25,878 nucleotides of DNA, from positions 1 through 25,878 of IMG/VR virus record IMGVR_UViG_3300014720_000165, one strand, 5' to 3'. The position numbers and the translations under genes are program-made. Positions 11,668-25,490 of the stretch are shown here, piece by piece. Each line of letters begins with the position of its first letter. Positions within the stretch are counted from its first letter, which is position 1. This stretch comes from a virus. Below the pieces are notes generated by a model. The model searched no databases and was not told the DNA's origin. It saw only the letters and a program-made list of their open reading frames with translations.

Positions 11668-12928
11668 TAAAAATGATGATGTAGAAACGCAGTGGAAAAA
11701 ATGGCGTGATTCTGGTCTAAAATTTGAAAACATTGATGAGAATGAATTAAGAACTCGTGTCATTGAAGAGTTGACCTACGTTTCAAAGATGGATGTCAAA
11801 GAGTACACATTATACCAAAAATGGTGTGAGGTGCAAGAAAGATATCCATCAATAATTGTCAATGATTTGTGGGAAGGGGAGATGTGTGTCCTACAAGATG
11901 AAGAACAAAGGCGTGCCATCGCTGAGGTTAAACATAATTTTTGGATACCAGAATCACCAGAGGCCTATGAAGCATTAGATCCTGAACTTGTCTACACCAA
12001 TAAAGATAAAGACTTGCCTGAATTGTGGAACTGTATACGCACTTTTTCTTCTACAATGAAAAACAATTCAAACATTGGTCGTAATCTAAACTTTATTGTT
12101 CGTGACAGACACACCAGAAAATATCTTGGTGTCATTTGTATTTCTTCAGACTTTTTAGACCTAACACCAAGAGATAGATACATTGGTTGGACAAAAGAAT
12201 TAAAGACTCAAGGAGGTATGATTAATCACACAGCCATTGGTTCTACGATTGTACCACTTCAACCACTTGGTTTTAATTATGTTGGTGGTAAATTATTGGC
12301 TCTTCTTTGCCTTTCGGATCCAATACAAGAACTATGGGAAAAACTCTATGGTGATAAGTTGGTCTCTATTACCACCACATCACTCTACGGCAAAACGAAG
12401 GCGGATGGTCTATCCCAGTATGATAACCTAGACTACTGGCAGAAAATGGGATTCATTTCGGGTTCCGTGTCGTATGAGCCAACAAGTACCACTCGTTATA
12501 TGATTCGTGAATGGCTGAAGACTAATTATACACGCCGATATTTTGATTGGTATGTAGCGAAGAAACCATCTGGTCAACCACATAAACGTGACCACAAGAA
12601 TCGTTCATTGACCTTTGCGTATTCTAAACTGAATGTGCCAAAAGAACTCATTAAGTCTGACCATGCTCGTGGTATCTATTGGTGTCCTTTGTATGCCGAA
12701 ACTGTAGAATTTCTTCGTGGTGAAATTGACGGCAAAAATATGAAGAAATGCTTTGATACATCGGTCGGACACCTAAGTAGGATATGGAAAGAAAAACATG
12801 CGAAGCCCCGAATCAAACAGTTGGTGAAGAAAGGACGTGTTTCAAGTGAGACTCTTTTCTATGACAATCTGGCAACATTAAGTTGGCAAAAAGCAAAAGA
12901 CTTATATTTGCCACAAGTAGGGCGCTGA
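11651..12928 (+). CDS. DUF4338/DruA-like protein
   Basis: 425 residues. The central block resembles DUF4338, the domain of DruA from Druantia anti-phage systems: NIGRNLNFIVRD (142-152), YLGVICISSDFLDLTPRDRYIGW (158-180, with the RDxxIGW signature), a hydrophobic region LGFNYVGGKLLALLCLSDPIQELWEKLYG (206-234) and TTTSLYGKTKADGLSQYDNLDYWQKMGF (241-268), equivalent to the family's closing stretch. The C-terminal 150 residues are basic and not assigned. Similar proteins are found in marine T4-like phages; their role is unknown, and no other Druantia gene is nearby. It overlaps the deformylase gene and ends the gp55-gp46 operon. Family assignment is from remembered motifs. Confidence 0.7.
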   Translation: MSYSFDKNDDVETQWKKWRDSGLKFENIDENELRTRVIEELTYVSKMDVKEYTLYQKWCEVQERYPSIIVNDLWEGEMCVLQDEEQRRAIAEVKHNFWIPESPEAYEALDPELVYTNKDKDLPELWNCIRTFSSTMKNNSNIGRNLNFIVRDRHTRKYLGVICISSDFLDLTPRDRYIGWTKELKTQGGMINHTAIGSTIVPLQPLGFNYVGGKLLALLCLSDPIQELWEKLYGDKLVSITTTSLYGKTKADGLSQYDNLDYWQKMGFISGSVSYEPTSTTRYMIREWLKTNYTRRYFDWYVAKKPSGQPHKRDHKNRSLTFAYSKLNVPKELIKSDHARGIYWCPLYAETVEFLRGEIDGKNMKKCFDTSVGHLSRIWKEKHAKPRIKQLVKKGRVSSETLFYDNLATLSWQKAKDLYLPQVGR

Positions 12929-12949
12929 TTACTATATACTCCTTTATAT

Positions 12950-13012
12950 GCGGTGAGTCCGAGACAACCTACCCCCGTAGGTAGAGAGGTTTAACTCCTC
13001 TTAACCGCTCCA
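12950..13012 (+). ncRNA. tRNA-like folded element ending in CCA (candidate)
   Basis: A 63-base cloverleaf-like fold can be drawn. The 5' arm GCGGTGA (12950-12956) pairs with TAACCGC (13002-13008), with one G-A mismatch. The stem AGAGG/CCTCT (12985-12989/12997-13001) encloses a 7-base loop TTTAACT, like a T arm with T in place of C56. It is followed by T and CCA (13009-13012). The middle is reduced to GTC-CGA-GAC (12957-12965) and a perfect 6-bp hairpin ACCTAC/GTAGGT with a CCCC loop (12967-12982), so there is no 7-base anticodon loop and it cannot be a normal tRNA. It could be a decayed tRNA, a tRNA mimic or simply stacked hairpins. Confidence 0.4.
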
Positions 13013-13016
13013 CTTC

Positions 13017-13034
13017 TGTTGTTTTTTCGCAACA
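13017..13034 (+). repeat. 18-base hairpin repeat, copy 1
   Basis: TGTTG (13017-13021) pairs with CAACA (13030-13034) around TTTTTTCG. A copy at 15491-15508 matches in 16 of 18 positions. Both lie between a gene end and a consensus promoter. Confidence 0.5.
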
Positions 13035-13069
13035 AAAAACACCAATGAAATCAATAACTTACGAAGCGC

Positions 13070-13098
13070 TTGACAAACCACTGTGGCCAGAGTATAAT
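13070..13098 (+). promoter_or_regulatory. Perfect sigma70-type promoter for the CobT-like gene
   Basis: TTGACA (13070-13075), 17-base spacer, TATAAT (13093-13098), followed by GG. The predicted start is near 13105, giving a leader of about 22 bases. The spacer contains the palindrome CCACTGTGG (13079-13087). Confidence 0.85.
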
Positions 13099-13126
13099 GG
13101 ACACATAAATTGTTACGGATATTGAT

Positions 13127-15490
13127 ATGTCTTTTACAGCTGAACAAAAATCGCAACTTGCCAAACTGATGGCAACCGAGAATCTTACGGTACAACACCA
13201 AAAGATTCATACCGCTAAGTTTGACCCGGTCAACCGTATACTCTACTTGCCAATTTGGCAAGATATGTCAGGCCACCTCTATGACCTTTTGACAGGCCAT
13301 GAAGTTGGTCATGCACTTTACACTCCTGCCGACGGCTGGCACTCTGCCGCTTCTGACAAAACCAAGCCTTCAAGCTACAAGAATTTTTTGAATGTAGTTG
13401 AAGATGCTCGTATTGAAAAGAAAGTAAAGCGCCGTTACCCTGGTCTTAAAACCCCATTTCAAAAAGCATACAAAGAGCTATTTGAAAAAGACTTTTTTGG
13501 TATTGGTTCCAGGAAAGTTTCTGACATGGCCTTTATTGACCGTTTAAACATTTACAGCAAATCACAATACACAGCGAACTGGATTACATTCAACGCTGAA
13601 GAAAGTGTTTTTGTGGATAAAATTCAATTGCTTGAAACATGGGAAGATGTTGTCAAATTAACTGATGAAATCTTTGCATATTCAAAAGATGAGCAGTTTG
13701 AATTAAAACCAAATGACATTGAAATTGGTGAAGATGGTGATGAGTATGCTTCCGAAGGTGATGGCTATGATTCCGATGGCGATGACTCAGAGAATGAAGA
13801 TGGTCCTGAGCAAAAGTCCAAAAACTCTAAGTCTGGTAAAAATGAAGAAGGTGATTCGGACAAAGATACCGGTGGTGCTGACGGTGAGCCTGAGTCGGAT
13901 AAACTGAGTGAAAGTAATGAAGATGGCAACAAGATTTCACGCCATAAGGAATCAAATGTTGCTGATAAGAACATGTTTAATCCTAAATGTGTCACCGATG
14001 AACAGTACCGTAAAAATGAATTGGCTTTGCTTGATGAACAAAGCAAACCTTATTTGTACCTGAACATTCCTAAATTCAATGTAAAACTAGGTGTCACTCC
14101 CGCTAAGCGAGTGATTGAGCAAATTAACGAATATTACTTTAAGGCTGGTTCATTGTATGATGAAGCCATTATATCAGCTCAAGATGCTAAGAAAATGGTC
14201 AGTGATTTTAAAACCAGAAATGAGCGTTACATTGGTTTGTTAGTGAAAGAATTTGAAATGCGTAAGGCAGCCAAAGCTTTCAGTAAGTCCCGCTTGTCGG
14301 AAACAGGTGGCATTGACATTAACAAGTTGTCAAGCTACAAGTTTGATGATAACATTTTCCGCAAAGTGATGCTTACGCCAAAAGGTAAGAATCATGGTCT
14401 CATTCTTTTGCTTGACAAATCCGGTTCAATGGGACAGAACATGCCAGGGTCTATTGAGCAGATTTTGATTCTCGCCACGTTTTGCCGCAAAGTGAATATT
14501 CCGTTTGCGGTGTATGGTTTTTCAAATTCCGACCGTTCATTCAAGTTAGATCACAGCCTAAAAGATTATTCTGGTGTTCGTATGGATAAAATCTGGTCTG
14601 CTGATGAAAACGAACTTAGTTTAAGTCCGGTACAATTGCGTGAGTACCTAAACTCTTCAATGAGCAATGTAGAATTTTCTTTGGCTACCAAGGCTCTTCT
14701 TGCTTTGAAGTCTTCGTATGATGGTTCACGCCGTTTTGCGGGTCAACCTAGGTCTGAAGAATTGACCAATACTCCATTGATTGAGGCTGTAATTGCTTCG
14801 GGTTATCTGATGAAACAGTTTCGCCAAAAGTATGGTCTAGACCTTTCAAGTTTGATTATTGTACATGACGGTGATTCTGATATGGTGAATCGTTATCATT
14901 ACACTTATGAAGTTTATAGTGACAGAGAAAAGAAATATGAAAAGATTTCACGCACTTCACATTTCAGTTTATTTGAATCAAATGTATGTATTCAAGACAC
15001 TGCATTGAACTTTTCTCGCAAGCTTGAAAAAAGAAAAAACTATGATGAGATGTTGATTGTTGCTTTAGACTGGTTTCGCCGAGTTAGCCAATCAAAAGTG
15101 TTTGGCTTCTTTTTGGCTCCCGATAATCGTGGTGGTGCAAAAAATGCTTTGTATAATCGTTATGTGTTTGAAGACGGTGAGCATTTTGACACCAAGAGAT
15201 TCGTTTTTCATCGTCAATCAAATCAAAGTGGTCTTAATGATATGGATGTTCAACTTGATAAGATTGTGAAAAAGTTTAAGCAAGACAAGTTTATTGCTTG
15301 TAAGCCTTTTGGTTATGATGAGTTTTACATTGTTGCTGGTGGTACCGATTTGGTCACTGACAACGAAGAATTAGAAATTGAAGGTAAGGCAACACCAAGT
15401 AAATTGAAAACTGCCTTTCTTAAGTTGAACAAAAAGAAGGCAATCAATCGTGTTTTGGTGTCCCGTTTCATCCAAGGCATTGCCGCCTAG
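13127..15490 (+). CDS. CobT-like protein: putative zincin plus VWA domain
   Basis: 787 residues. N-terminal region with HEVGH (58-62), a HExxH zinc-protease motif, and NVVEDARIE (89-97), a likely site for the third zinc ligand. Residues about 200-275 are a highly acidic Asp/Glu/Ser/Gly linker. A C-terminal von Willebrand A domain has a complete MIDAS D-x-S-x-S (D430, S432, S434). This zincin/acidic linker/VWA layout, followed by an AAA+ CobS-like gene, is the CobS-CobT arrangement also seen in marine T4-like phages. In bacteria CobST helps CobN insert cobalt in cobalamin synthesis; with no CobN here and a protease motif present, a substrate-remodelling ATPase/adaptor pair is at least as likely. 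The Shine-Dalgarno is weak (ACGGAT, about 10 bases upstream). Confidence 0.85.
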   Translation: MSFTAEQKSQLAKLMATENLTVQHQKIHTAKFDPVNRILYLPIWQDMSGHLYDLLTGHEVGHALYTPADGWHSAASDKTKPSSYKNFLNVVEDARIEKKVKRRYPGLKTPFQKAYKELFEKDFFGIGSRKVSDMAFIDRLNIYSKSQYTANWITFNAEESVFVDKIQLLETWEDVVKLTDEIFAYSKDEQFELKPNDIEIGEDGDEYASEGDGYDSDGDDSENEDGPEQKSKNSKSGKNEEGDSDKDTGGADGEPESDKLSESNEDGNKISRHKESNVADKNMFNPKCVTDEQYRKNELALLDEQSKPYLYLNIPKFNVKLGVTPAKRVIEQINEYYFKAGSLYDEAIISAQDAKKMVSDFKTRNERYIGLLVKEFEMRKAAKAFSKSRLSETGGIDINKLSSYKFDDNIFRKVMLTPKGKNHGLILLLDKSGSMGQNMPGSIEQILILATFCRKVNIPFAVYGFSNSDRSFKLDHSLKDYSGVRMDKIWSADENELSLSPVQLREYLNSSMSNVEFSLATKALLALKSSYDGSRRFAGQPRSEELTNTPLIEAVIASGYLMKQFRQKYGLDLSSLIIVHDGDSDMVNRYHYTYEVYSDREKKYEKISRTSHFSLFESNVCIQDTALNFSRKLEKRKNYDEMLIVALDWFRRVSQSKVFGFFLAPDNRGGAKNALYNRYVFEDGEHFDTKRFVFHRQSNQSGLNDMDVQLDKIVKKFKQDKFIACKPFGYDEFYIVAGGTDLVTDNEELEIEGKATPSKLKTAFLKLNKKKAINRVLVSRFIQGIAA

Positions 15491-18253: not shown

Positions 18254-18282
18254 TTGACATGGGCTTCGGCCTATGTCATACT
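18254..18282 (+). promoter_or_regulatory. Sigma70-type promoter inside a UUCG hairpin
   Basis: TTGACA (18254-18259), 17-base spacer, -10-like CATACT (18277-18282). The promoter is overlaid by a 10-bp stem, 18255-18264 with 18269-18278, with a TTCG tetraloop and one G-T pair. The hairpin could end or process transcripts of the upstream HNH gene, although no T run follows. Confidence 0.65.
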
Positions 18283-18285
18283 GTG

Positions 18286-18331
18286 ACCTGCTGAGATAAC
18301 GGTCGCATCTCGGTAGGTAATTTGTGCGACC
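18286..18331 (+). ncRNA. Structured 5' leader with predicted pseudoknot (candidate regulatory RNA)
   Basis: A continuous 12-bp helix pairs 18286-18297 with 18307-18318 (two G-T wobbles, no mismatch). Its 9-base loop contains GGTCGC (18301-18306), fully complementary to GCGACC (18326-18331) just downstream, so an H-type pseudoknot can form. It ends 6 bases before the Shine-Dalgarno GGAGA (18338-18342) of the winged-helix gene. It lies at the start of the transcript from the 18254 promoter. Candidate cis-regulatory element; the ligand or binding protein is unknown, and autoregulation by the encoded protein is one option. Confidence 0.6.
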
Positions 18332-18351
18332 AAATATGGAGAAAATTTGTA

Positions 18352-18624
18352 ATGTCTGCAAAACAAAAAGTCTTAGACTATCTTTCAAAAACTGGTTCTT
18401 ATAACACTCTAACTGCCAATAAAATGCAGAAAATGTTTGGTGTTAAGAACCCTTCCGCAACCATCAACGAACTTCGCAATGAAGGTCATGCTATTTACCT
18501 GAACACTCGCAAAACTTCTAGCGGTGACAAGGTATCTTTCTACCGTCTTGGTACTCCTACCAGACGTATGGTTGCTGCTGGTATCGCCGCACTTCGCTCA
18601 GGCGGCCGGCGTGCTTTTGCCTAA
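18352..18624 (+). CDS. Small winged-helix DNA-binding protein
   Basis: 90 residues from ATG 18352, which has GGAGA 9 bases upstream; an earlier in-frame start (18322) lies within the structured leader. Residues about 5-65 read as a winged-helix domain: helix KVLDYLSKTG, helix-turn-helix LTANKMQKMFGVKNPSATINELRNEG (20-45) and a wing with strands AIYLNTRK and KVSFYRLG. A basic, Ala/Gly/Arg-rich tail ends in GGRRAFA. Proteins like this occur in cyanophages as unnamed HTH proteins. It has its own promoter, a folded leader and a strong terminator, so it is a single-gene unit, as expected for a regulator. The first terminator hairpin overlaps its stop. Confidence 0.8.
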   Translation: MSAKQKVLDYLSKTGSYNTLTANKMQKMFGVKNPSATINELRNEGHAIYLNTRKTSSGDKVSFYRLGTPTRRMVAAGIAALRSGGRRAFA

Positions 18625-18680
18625 TCTCACCTAAATTAGGCTTTGAGGAGAGATATATAATTATGTCTCTCCTCTTTTTT
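18619..18680 (+). terminator. Double hairpin terminator after the winged-helix gene
   Basis: GCCTAA (18619-18624) pairs with TTAGGC (18636-18641), overlapping the stop codon. Then a 13-bp stem (18645-18657 with 18662-18674, one G-T pair, loop TAAT) is followed by six T. The second hairpin is the strongest terminator in the window. Confidence 0.92.
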
Positions 18681-24780: not shown

Positions 24781-24954
24781 ATGAAAATTGTGAAATTAAA
24801 GAACATCTATACGAAAGAGATAGTCTTTACGGAAAACTATGAGAAGACCGTCAAGAAAGATGAACTAGAATTCATTTATGTATATAAGGAAGAAACGCCT
24901 CAACGAAAGTATCTTGCCAATAAAAACGCTTTCGAAATACTAAATAACAAATGA
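24781..24954 (+). CDS. Small hypothetical protein after RegA
   Basis: 57 residues starting MKIVKLKNIYTKEIVFTENY and ending EILNNK. Charged, Lys/Glu-rich, with short beta strands near the start and FIYVYKEE in the middle. It begins two bases after the regA stop. No known family. Accepted because of the tight spacing, ATG start and typical composition; a hairpin overlapping its stop codon (24949-24979) may end the operon. Confidence 0.65.
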   Translation: MKIVKLKNIYTKEIVFTENYEKTVKKDELEFIYVYKEETPQRKYLANKNAFEILNNK

Positions 24955-24979
24955 CCGGTGCCTAAAGGGCTGGTCATTC
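24949..24979 (+). terminator. Hairpin at end of the regA operon
   Basis: AATGACCGG... pairs with ...CTGGTCATT (one G-T pair), around a loop that can itself close GCC with GGC. No T run follows, so termination is uncertain; it could be an RNA stabiliser or processing hairpin. Confidence 0.45.
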
Positions 24980-25004
24980 TAACTTGCTTAATAAGGAGAA
25001 AACT

Positions 25005-25490
25005 ATGTCTACAATGACAGGCTTTACATTACGTCCGCTTCACTACACAACCCTTGGTTTTGAACGTTTCTTTAATGATGTTGAAAGACTTATGAAAGAT
25101 GATGTTCATAACAAGGCCTCTAATTTCCCACCACACAATATCATTCGGCTAGATGACAATCGTTATGTTGTTGAAATGGCTGTTGCTGGTTTTGCCAAAG
25201 ATGAGATTGATATTACGATTGAAGATGGTAGTTTGATTGTGAAGGGAAACAAAAAAGAAGGTGATACCAATATTCAATATGTACATCGTGGAATTGGTAC
25301 ACGTTCTTTCACCAAAACATTCACTGTTGCTGAAACGATTGAAGTTCGTGGTGCCGAGTTCAAAGATGGTATTCTTCGTATTGGTCTAGAAAATATTATT
25401 CCAGAACATAAGAAGCCACGCAAAGTTGAAATCGGCGGTAGTCTTGAGGCATTTAAGCCTCAACTGCTGCAAGAACAAAAAGCGGCATAA
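25005..25490 (+). CDS. Hsp20-type small heat shock protein
   Basis: 161 residues from ATG 25005, with AAGGAG (24993-24998) 6 bases upstream. IbpA-like: N-terminal FTLRPLHYTTLGFERFFND, alpha-crystallin domain from PHNIIRLDDNRYVVEMAVAGFAKDEIDI (about 43-70) through LIVKGNK, GIGTRSFTKTFTVAE and GAEFKDGILRIGLE with the G-x-L motif near the end. The chaperone holds unfolded proteins. Hsp20 genes are a core accessory of cyanophage-type T4-like phages. A combined terminator/promoter lies directly after its stop. Confidence 0.94.
   Translation: MSTMTGFTLRPLHYTTLGFERFFNDVERLMKDDVHNKASNFPPHNIIRLDDNRYVVEMAVAGFAKDEIDITIEDGSLIVKGNKKEGDTNIQYVHRGIGTRSFTKTFTVAETIEVRGAEFKDGILRIGLENIIPEHKKPRKVEIGGSLEAFKPQLLQEQKAA

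What the first reader, a model, noticed from the sequence alone, without database searches (positions are those of the whole stretch)
18286..18342. Predicted pseudoknot leader controlling a winged-helix gene
The sequence shows an uninterrupted 12-bp helix (two G-T pairs) whose loop bases GGTCGC (18301-18306) are fully complementary to GCGACC (18326-18331). The second helix ends 6 bases before the Shine-Dalgarno. The element fills most of the leader between a sigma70-type promoter and a single-gene regulator. H-type pseudoknots this close to a ribosome site often act as riboswitches or translational operators. I know no described family with this sequence. Function is inferred.
Basis: partly seen in the sequence, partly recalled or inferred. 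Interest (0 to 1): 0.72.

Follow-up and report, generated by a model that had tools for sequence, protein, structure and literature searches.

The report
Conserved pseudoknot before a phage gene
Many T4-like phages known from environmental sequence fold the start of one small gene's messenger RNA into the same knotted shape although its letters change freely, so the shape itself is under selection and probably controls how much of a small DNA/RNA-binding protein is made.

Summary
The H-type pseudoknot at 18286-18331 is the best in the window, and none of 2,000 shuffles reaches it. Relatives of the winged-helix gene carry it in 86 of 86 distinct window-type leaders and 56 of 56 distinct pelagiphage-like leaders. 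All 16 tested pairs of the window-type group show compensatory changes. G-U pairs outnumber A-C by 43 to 4, so it works as sense-strand RNA. It occurs once per phage contig, always before this gene, and no Rfam family matches.

In the window-type group it starts at about +1 of a sigma70-type transcript. In the other group it fills the gap between a ribosomal-protein bS21 gene and the winged-helix gene. The Methylophilales-phage branch lost helix 2, and some leaders there lost both helices.

Loops are not conserved, which argues against a riboswitch. Best explanation: a shape-recognised cis element at the edge of the 30S footprint, most likely an autogenous translational operator of the T4 gene 32 kind. 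Rival: a 5'-end stabiliser. No ligand or function is shown. In passing, the window's hsp20 leader resembles a ROSE thermometer.

The parts
18254..18282 (+). sigma70-type promoter: TTGACA (18254-18259), 17-nt spacer, CATACT (18277-18282)
   Evidence: sequence; 85 of 85 window-type relatives have a promoter with <=4/12 mismatches, spacer 17 in 82
18255..18278 (+). 10-bp hairpin with cUUCGg loop inside the promoter, probably the 3' end/terminator of the upstream transcript
   Evidence: fold z -5.5; the overlap of -35 and upstream hairpin recurs in relatives
18286..18297 (+). P1 5' arm of the pseudoknot (outer 3-4 nt possibly upstream of the transcription start)
18298..18300 (+). loop 1 (AAC), crosses P2
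   Evidence: length 1-5 nt and sequence variable in relatives
18301..18306 (+). P2 5' arm GGUCGC
18307..18318 (+). P1 3' arm
18319..18325 (+). loop 3, A/U-rich
   Evidence: relatives mean 12 nt, 78% A+U
18326..18331 (+). P2 3' arm GCGACC, 20 nt before the AUG (edge of the 30S footprint)
18332..18341 (+). A/U linker and Shine-Dalgarno GGAG (18338-18341)
   Evidence: linker 95% A+U in relatives
18352..18624 (+). winged-helix gene (90 aa; HTH_39, phrog_4973)
   Evidence: PF14090 E 1.7e-5; AlphaFold2 model pLDDT 82, HHH-EE-H; ORF
18645..18680 (+). intrinsic terminator: 13-bp stem followed by T6
   Evidence: z -6.2

Best explanation
It is a conserved H-type pseudoknot in the mRNA of a small winged-helix protein of T4-like phages. 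It acts in cis on that gene only. It stands just upstream of the 30S footprint and leaves an unpaired A/U-rich linker, the Shine-Dalgarno and the start codon free. The most likely mechanism is autogenous translational control of the T4 gene 32 type. When the protein is in excess it recognises the coaxially stacked pseudoknot by shape rather than by letters and blocks the 30S subunit. In the window-type group the pseudoknot lies at the 5' end of the transcript and may also shield the mRNA from 5'-end-dependent decay. Shown: structure, covariation, strand, exclusive linkage, position. Inferred: that a protein binds it, that this protein is the gene's own product, and that binding represses translation.
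For: Structure: 91.8% of cells paired against 75.8% shuffled and 36-44% when slid; all 16 pairs have double changes; P2 also covaries in the pelagiphage-like group. Sense-strand RNA: 43 G-U against 4 A-C. Linked only to this gene: all 61 full-length cases found by a P1-only DNA pattern have the pseudoknot, plus 3 truncated or mis-started copies; one strong hit per contig in 14 of 14 large contigs. Of 329 other gene starts in the same loci only 5 reach -18, against 85 of 86 and 51 of 56 here. Position: P2 end to AUG is 18-24 nt in 76 of 85 window-type leaders and 19-28 in 52 pelagiphage-like leaders. It persists in two transcript contexts, as a 5'-terminal leader and as the bS21-winged-helix intergenic gap, as expected if it acts on the downstream start. 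The product has a nucleic-acid-binding fold. Precedent: the gene 32 pseudoknot (PMC3014915).
Against: No binding or repression data. The Shine-Dalgarno is not itself sequestered. P1 and P2 letters change while the protein stays about 80% identical, so recognition would have to be by shape. One related branch (Methylophilales-phage type) lives with a simple hairpin or no helix. A 5'-protective role needs no ligand and fits the +1 placement equally well in the window-type group.
Confidence: 0.48

Rival explanations
1. 5'-terminal stabiliser/insulator: the pseudoknot is a structured 5' end that keeps RppH/RNase E (or a 5'-3' exonuclease) off the mRNA and keeps upstream sequence from pairing with the ribosome site. 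No ligand is needed.
For: P1 starts 7-8 nt after the -10 in 52 of 85 leaders, i.e. at about +1. Sequence is free while shape is kept. The Methylophilales-phage branch has a plain hairpin at the same 5' position, which would serve the same end. T4 gene 32 mRNA, also carrying a pseudoknot, is the most stable T4 mRNA (PMC3014915).
Against: In 46 of 52 pelagiphage-like leaders the pseudoknot is intergenic after bS21, starting 7-10 nt behind its stop codon in 35, with no consensus promoter, so there it is not a primary 5' end. A pseudoknot rather than a hairpin is kept in two diverged groups. P2-to-AUG distance is held within a few nt.
Confidence: 0.3
2. Operator for another protein: bS21 (its gene lies upstream in pelagiphage-like genomes), a host ribosomal protein or another phage RNA-binding protein binds the pseudoknot and sets winged-helix expression.
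For: Pseudoknots are ribosomal-protein operators in bacteria (S15/rpsO, named in PMC3014915). bS21 is directly upstream with P1 7-10 nt behind its stop codon.
Against: The window and window-type loci have other genes upstream, yet keep the pseudoknot. No Rfam r-protein leader matches.
Confidence: 0.12
3. Riboswitch: the pseudoknot is a metabolite aptamer like preQ1-I or SAM-II.
For: Same topology, close to the ribosome site.
Against: No conserved unpaired nucleotides; loops vary in length and letters. No conserved anti-SD alternative. The gene is a regulator, not a metabolic gene. No Rfam match. A published Riboswitch Scanner search found none in pelagimyophages or cyanomyophages (PMC7029224).
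Confidence: 0.04
4. DNA-level feature or chance: overlapping palindromes used as operators, no RNA role.
For: The promoter region is rich in inverted repeats, and the protein is a winged helix.
Against: Compensatory changes in every pair and strand-asymmetric G-U tolerance are RNA signatures; a sequence-reading DNA operator would keep its letters.
Confidence: 0.02

Closest known systems
T4 / T2 / RB69 gene 32 mRNA pseudoknot (translational operator for gp32)
   Same: T4-like phage; H-type pseudoknot with stacked stems upstream of an A/U-rich unpaired stretch and the ribosome site of a nucleic-acid-binding protein's gene; shape recognition plausible
   Different: Different gene (winged helix, not the ssDNA-binding protein); longer P1 with G/C-containing P2; pseudoknot ends about 20 nt, not tens of nt, before AUG; begins at the promoter start or behind bS21; autoregulation not shown
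E. coli rpsO (S15) operator pseudoknot
   Same: H-type pseudoknot next to the ribosome site of a small RNA-binding protein's gene
   Different: From general knowledge, the S15 pseudoknot includes the ribosome site and traps the 30S; here the Shine-Dalgarno is outside. Not homologous, no Rfam match
preQ1-I / SAM-II H-type pseudoknot riboswitches
   Same: Topology and closeness to the Shine-Dalgarno
   Different: No conserved aptamer nucleotides, no conserved Shine-Dalgarno sequestration
ompA / T7 gene 10 type 5' stem-loop leaders (mRNA stabilisers; from general knowledge)
   Same: Stable structure at the very 5' end followed by an A/U-rich linker and strong Shine-Dalgarno
   Different: Pseudoknot rather than hairpin, kept also in an intergenic position

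Membership tests
Any Rfam 15 family | score at or above the curated threshold | tested here: not met
   Searches (window; six related loci): no match to this leader; best hits at E 0.3-5 do not fit its structure
H-type RNA pseudoknot | two helices, loop of the first pairs downstream; both covary on the sense strand | tested here: met
T4 gene 32 pseudoknot operator | precedes the gp32 (ssDNA-binding protein) gene | tested here: not met
   downstream gene is HTH_39 / phrog_4973
T4 gene 32 pseudoknot operator | pseudoknot upstream of an A/U-rich unpaired stretch and ribosome site | tested here: met
   linker 95% A+U in window-type, 74% in pelagiphage-like leaders
Autogenous translational operator (general) | gene product binds the leader and represses translation | not testable with these tools
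   needs binding and reporter assays
Riboswitch (preQ1-I, SAM-II type) | conserved unpaired ligand-binding nucleotides | tested here: not met
   loops not conserved
5'-terminal mRNA stabiliser | structure begins within a few nt of the transcription start | tested here: inconclusive
   met by inference from -10 spacing in the window-type group, not met in the bS21-linked group; no transcript ends measured
Type III toxin-antitoxin RNA pseudoknot | tandem short pseudoknot repeats before an endoribonuclease toxin gene | tested here: not met
   single copy per contig; product is a winged helix

The most novel reading that the evidence does not exclude
An undescribed RNA family, spread through aquatic T4-like phages, in which a small winged-helix protein reads the shape of a pseudoknot on its own mRNA. 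In pelagiphages this is a built-in valve inside a phage ribosomal-protein bS21 operon. It would be a second, independent viral case of pseudoknot-based translational autoregulation.
Probability: 0.35. Interest if true: 0.75.

Novelty: new variant of a known kind. Interest (0 to 1): 0.62.

Why it matters
A 2010 review called the gene 32 pseudoknot possibly the only viral example used in translational autoregulation (PMC3014915). Here is a second conserved pseudoknot leader in T4-like phages, with a different gene and strong covariation, in phages that are hard to culture. It gives a direct handle on how such phages control a conserved but unnamed winged-helix protein, and on how a phage bS21 operon is organised. 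The prediction can be tested in an ordinary E. coli reporter.

Tried and rejected
Rfam at curated and loose thresholds: nothing relevant at this site. BLASTN of the leader against phage records: no match. PDB sequence search: nothing. Foldseek against PDB gave only generic winged helices, all E > 0.008, so the fold does not name a function. Anti-SD switching: no conserved CUCC. A use before other genes: pattern and covariance-model searches found none. The model's weak second hits lie about 365 nt further down, where the gene's terminator, with similar GAGGAGAG/CTCTCCTC letters, is expected. High-scoring 'pseudoknots' at other gene starts proved to be coding sequence or promoter/terminator overlaps; apparent ones in L283, L285, L291 and L292 come from the upstream terminator, not the leader. 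MAFFT misaligned P2 in two pelagiphage-like rows, so that group's P1 was checked by parsing each leader separately. Ancestral origin versus convergence of the pseudoknot in the two groups could not be settled with a roughly 90-aa protein tree.

Full report
What the window is. The 25.9-kb window is part of a T4-like myovirus genome: head protease, scaffold and major head protein, UvsW-type helicase, late sigma factor, sliding clamp, clamp loader and Hsp20. The finding lies between a 484-aa gene and a 90-aa winged-helix gene (HTH_39, PF14090, E 1.7e-5; phrog_4973).

The observation. A stacking-energy search for H-type pseudoknots ranks it first in the whole window on either strand (-34.9; next -24.5), and none of 2,000 dinucleotide shuffles of the leader reaches it. 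One correction: with the -10 at 18277-18282 the transcript probably starts near 18289-18290, so the outer 3-4 pairs of the 12-bp helix may not exist in the RNA.

Relatives. A protein search of viral contigs gave 452 relatives, of which the best 80 were held; further scans with diverged members brought about 310 more loci, partly overlapping. I split them into three groups by protein similarity; the group names are mine, and hosts or habitats were not tested. Window-type: 86 distinct leaders, 85 with an uninterrupted pseudoknot by the search (in L009, L012 and L023 the natural P2 carries one mismatch) and one (L166) with a one-base bulge in P1. Pelagiphage-like (cultured relatives 47-52% identical): 56 of 56 distinct leaders. 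Methylophilales-phage-like (Melnitz): only a hairpin at the same place, and in a few leaders no helix. The cultured phages HTVC008M, Mosig and DLP6 show no convincing pseudoknot, although the true start codon is uncertain in the first two.

Covariation. On a MAFFT alignment of 47 representative window-type leaders (less than 90% identical), 91.8% of cells pair against 75.8% after shuffling and 36-44% when the 3' side is slid by 1-3 columns. All 16 pairs show changes on both sides; 125 cells are doubly changed against 39 (0 of 500 shuffles on every measure). P2 of the pelagiphage-like group covaries too (93.1% paired against 84.3% shuffled). Per leader there are 35 P1 and 25 P2 variants in the first group and 30 and 18 in the second, while loop letters are not conserved. 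In the 13 inner pairs G-U occurs 43 times and A-C, which would be G-U on the other strand, 4 times. The selected object is therefore RNA transcribed in the direction of the gene.

Exclusive linkage. A pattern holding only P1 and part of P2 5', blind to the protein and to P2 3', found 81 sites in viral contigs: 61 precede a full-length relative of the gene and all 61 have the pseudoknot; three more (L346, L385, L389) precede truncated or mis-started copies; the rest are unrelated hairpins. A covariance model (P1 only, because the tool takes no pseudoknots) gives one strong hit in each of 14 large phage contigs. Of 329 other gene starts in these loci only 5 score -18 or better, and those examined overlap coding sequence, promoters or terminators.

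Two transcript contexts. In the window-type group all 85 leaders have a sigma70-type promoter (spacer 17 in 82) and P1 starts 7-8 nt after the -10 in 52, which is about +1. In the pelagiphage-like group 46 of 52 leaders lie behind a bS21 gene (PF01165, E 5e-14 for one tested), with P1 starting 7-10 nt after its stop codon in 35 and no consensus promoter; five of the six without bS21 have a perfect TTGACA-17-TATAAT. So the pseudoknot stays with the winged-helix start codon, not with a particular transcript start. P2 ends 18-24 nt (76 of 85) or 19-28 nt (52 of 52) before the AUG, at the upstream edge of the 30S footprint (the footprint size is general knowledge). The linker to the Shine-Dalgarno is 95% or 74% A+U.

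Mechanism. Free letters with a fixed shape, exclusive linkage to a nucleic-acid-binding protein, placement at the 30S edge and an unpaired A/U linker are what the T4 gene 32 operator looks like (PMC3014915). I therefore favour autogenous translational repression, about even odds. A 5'-protective role is the main rival, strong for the window-type group and weak for the bS21-linked one. A riboswitch is unlikely. No tool here can show binding, repression or stability.

The protein. The model (pLDDT 82) is a winged helix with a conserved YRxGxPxK turn and C-terminal helix. PDB neighbours are generic DNA-binding winged helices at weak E-values.

Limits. Most sequences are metagenomic contigs. The covariation test shares one alignment and related sequences, so the shuffle counts are not probabilities; the slide control, the strand asymmetry and the independent second group are the safeguards. 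Transcript starts are inferred from promoter spacing.

Noticed in passing
window 24952-25010 (+), leader of the hsp20 gene: Matches the Rfam ROSE_3 RNA thermometer (RF02523): 28.1 bits, E 1.9e-4, below the curated 43. The same layout (often a TATAAATA late-type promoter, a hairpin with a bulged G, then near-invariant AACU(U/C)GCUUA...AGGAG) stands before the gene in 69 distinct leaders of related phages, 64 clearly hsp20 and 5 with hsp20-like starts. A ROSE-like thermometer in T4-like phages would be worth its own study.
   Followed up: partly
window 18255-18278 and relatives (L008, L016, L053, L240, L257): The -35 of the winged-helix promoter lies inside the terminator-like hairpin of the upstream gene (here a 10-bp stem with cUUCGg loop); the hairpin arms differ by compensatory changes between relatives (L239 against L262).
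   Followed up: partly
L458 1206-1412 and about 45 similar loci: Phage-encoded ribosomal protein bS21 gene directly upstream of the winged-helix gene, with only the pseudoknot between them; not mentioned in the passages I looked up in three papers on phage bS21 and pelagimyophages (PMC6375957, PMC7029224, PMC9723584).
   Followed up: yes
L294, L302, L314 leaders: Possible miniature pseudoknots (4-bp P2) in intermediate relatives, e.g. UGUG/CACA in L302 against UGCA/UGCA in L314; too short to judge.
   Followed up: no
window 12920-13130: Long non-coding stretch with several hairpins and an inverted-repeat pair (CUACC.../GGUAG, GAGAGG/CCUCU) before the next promoter; not analysed.
   Followed up: no
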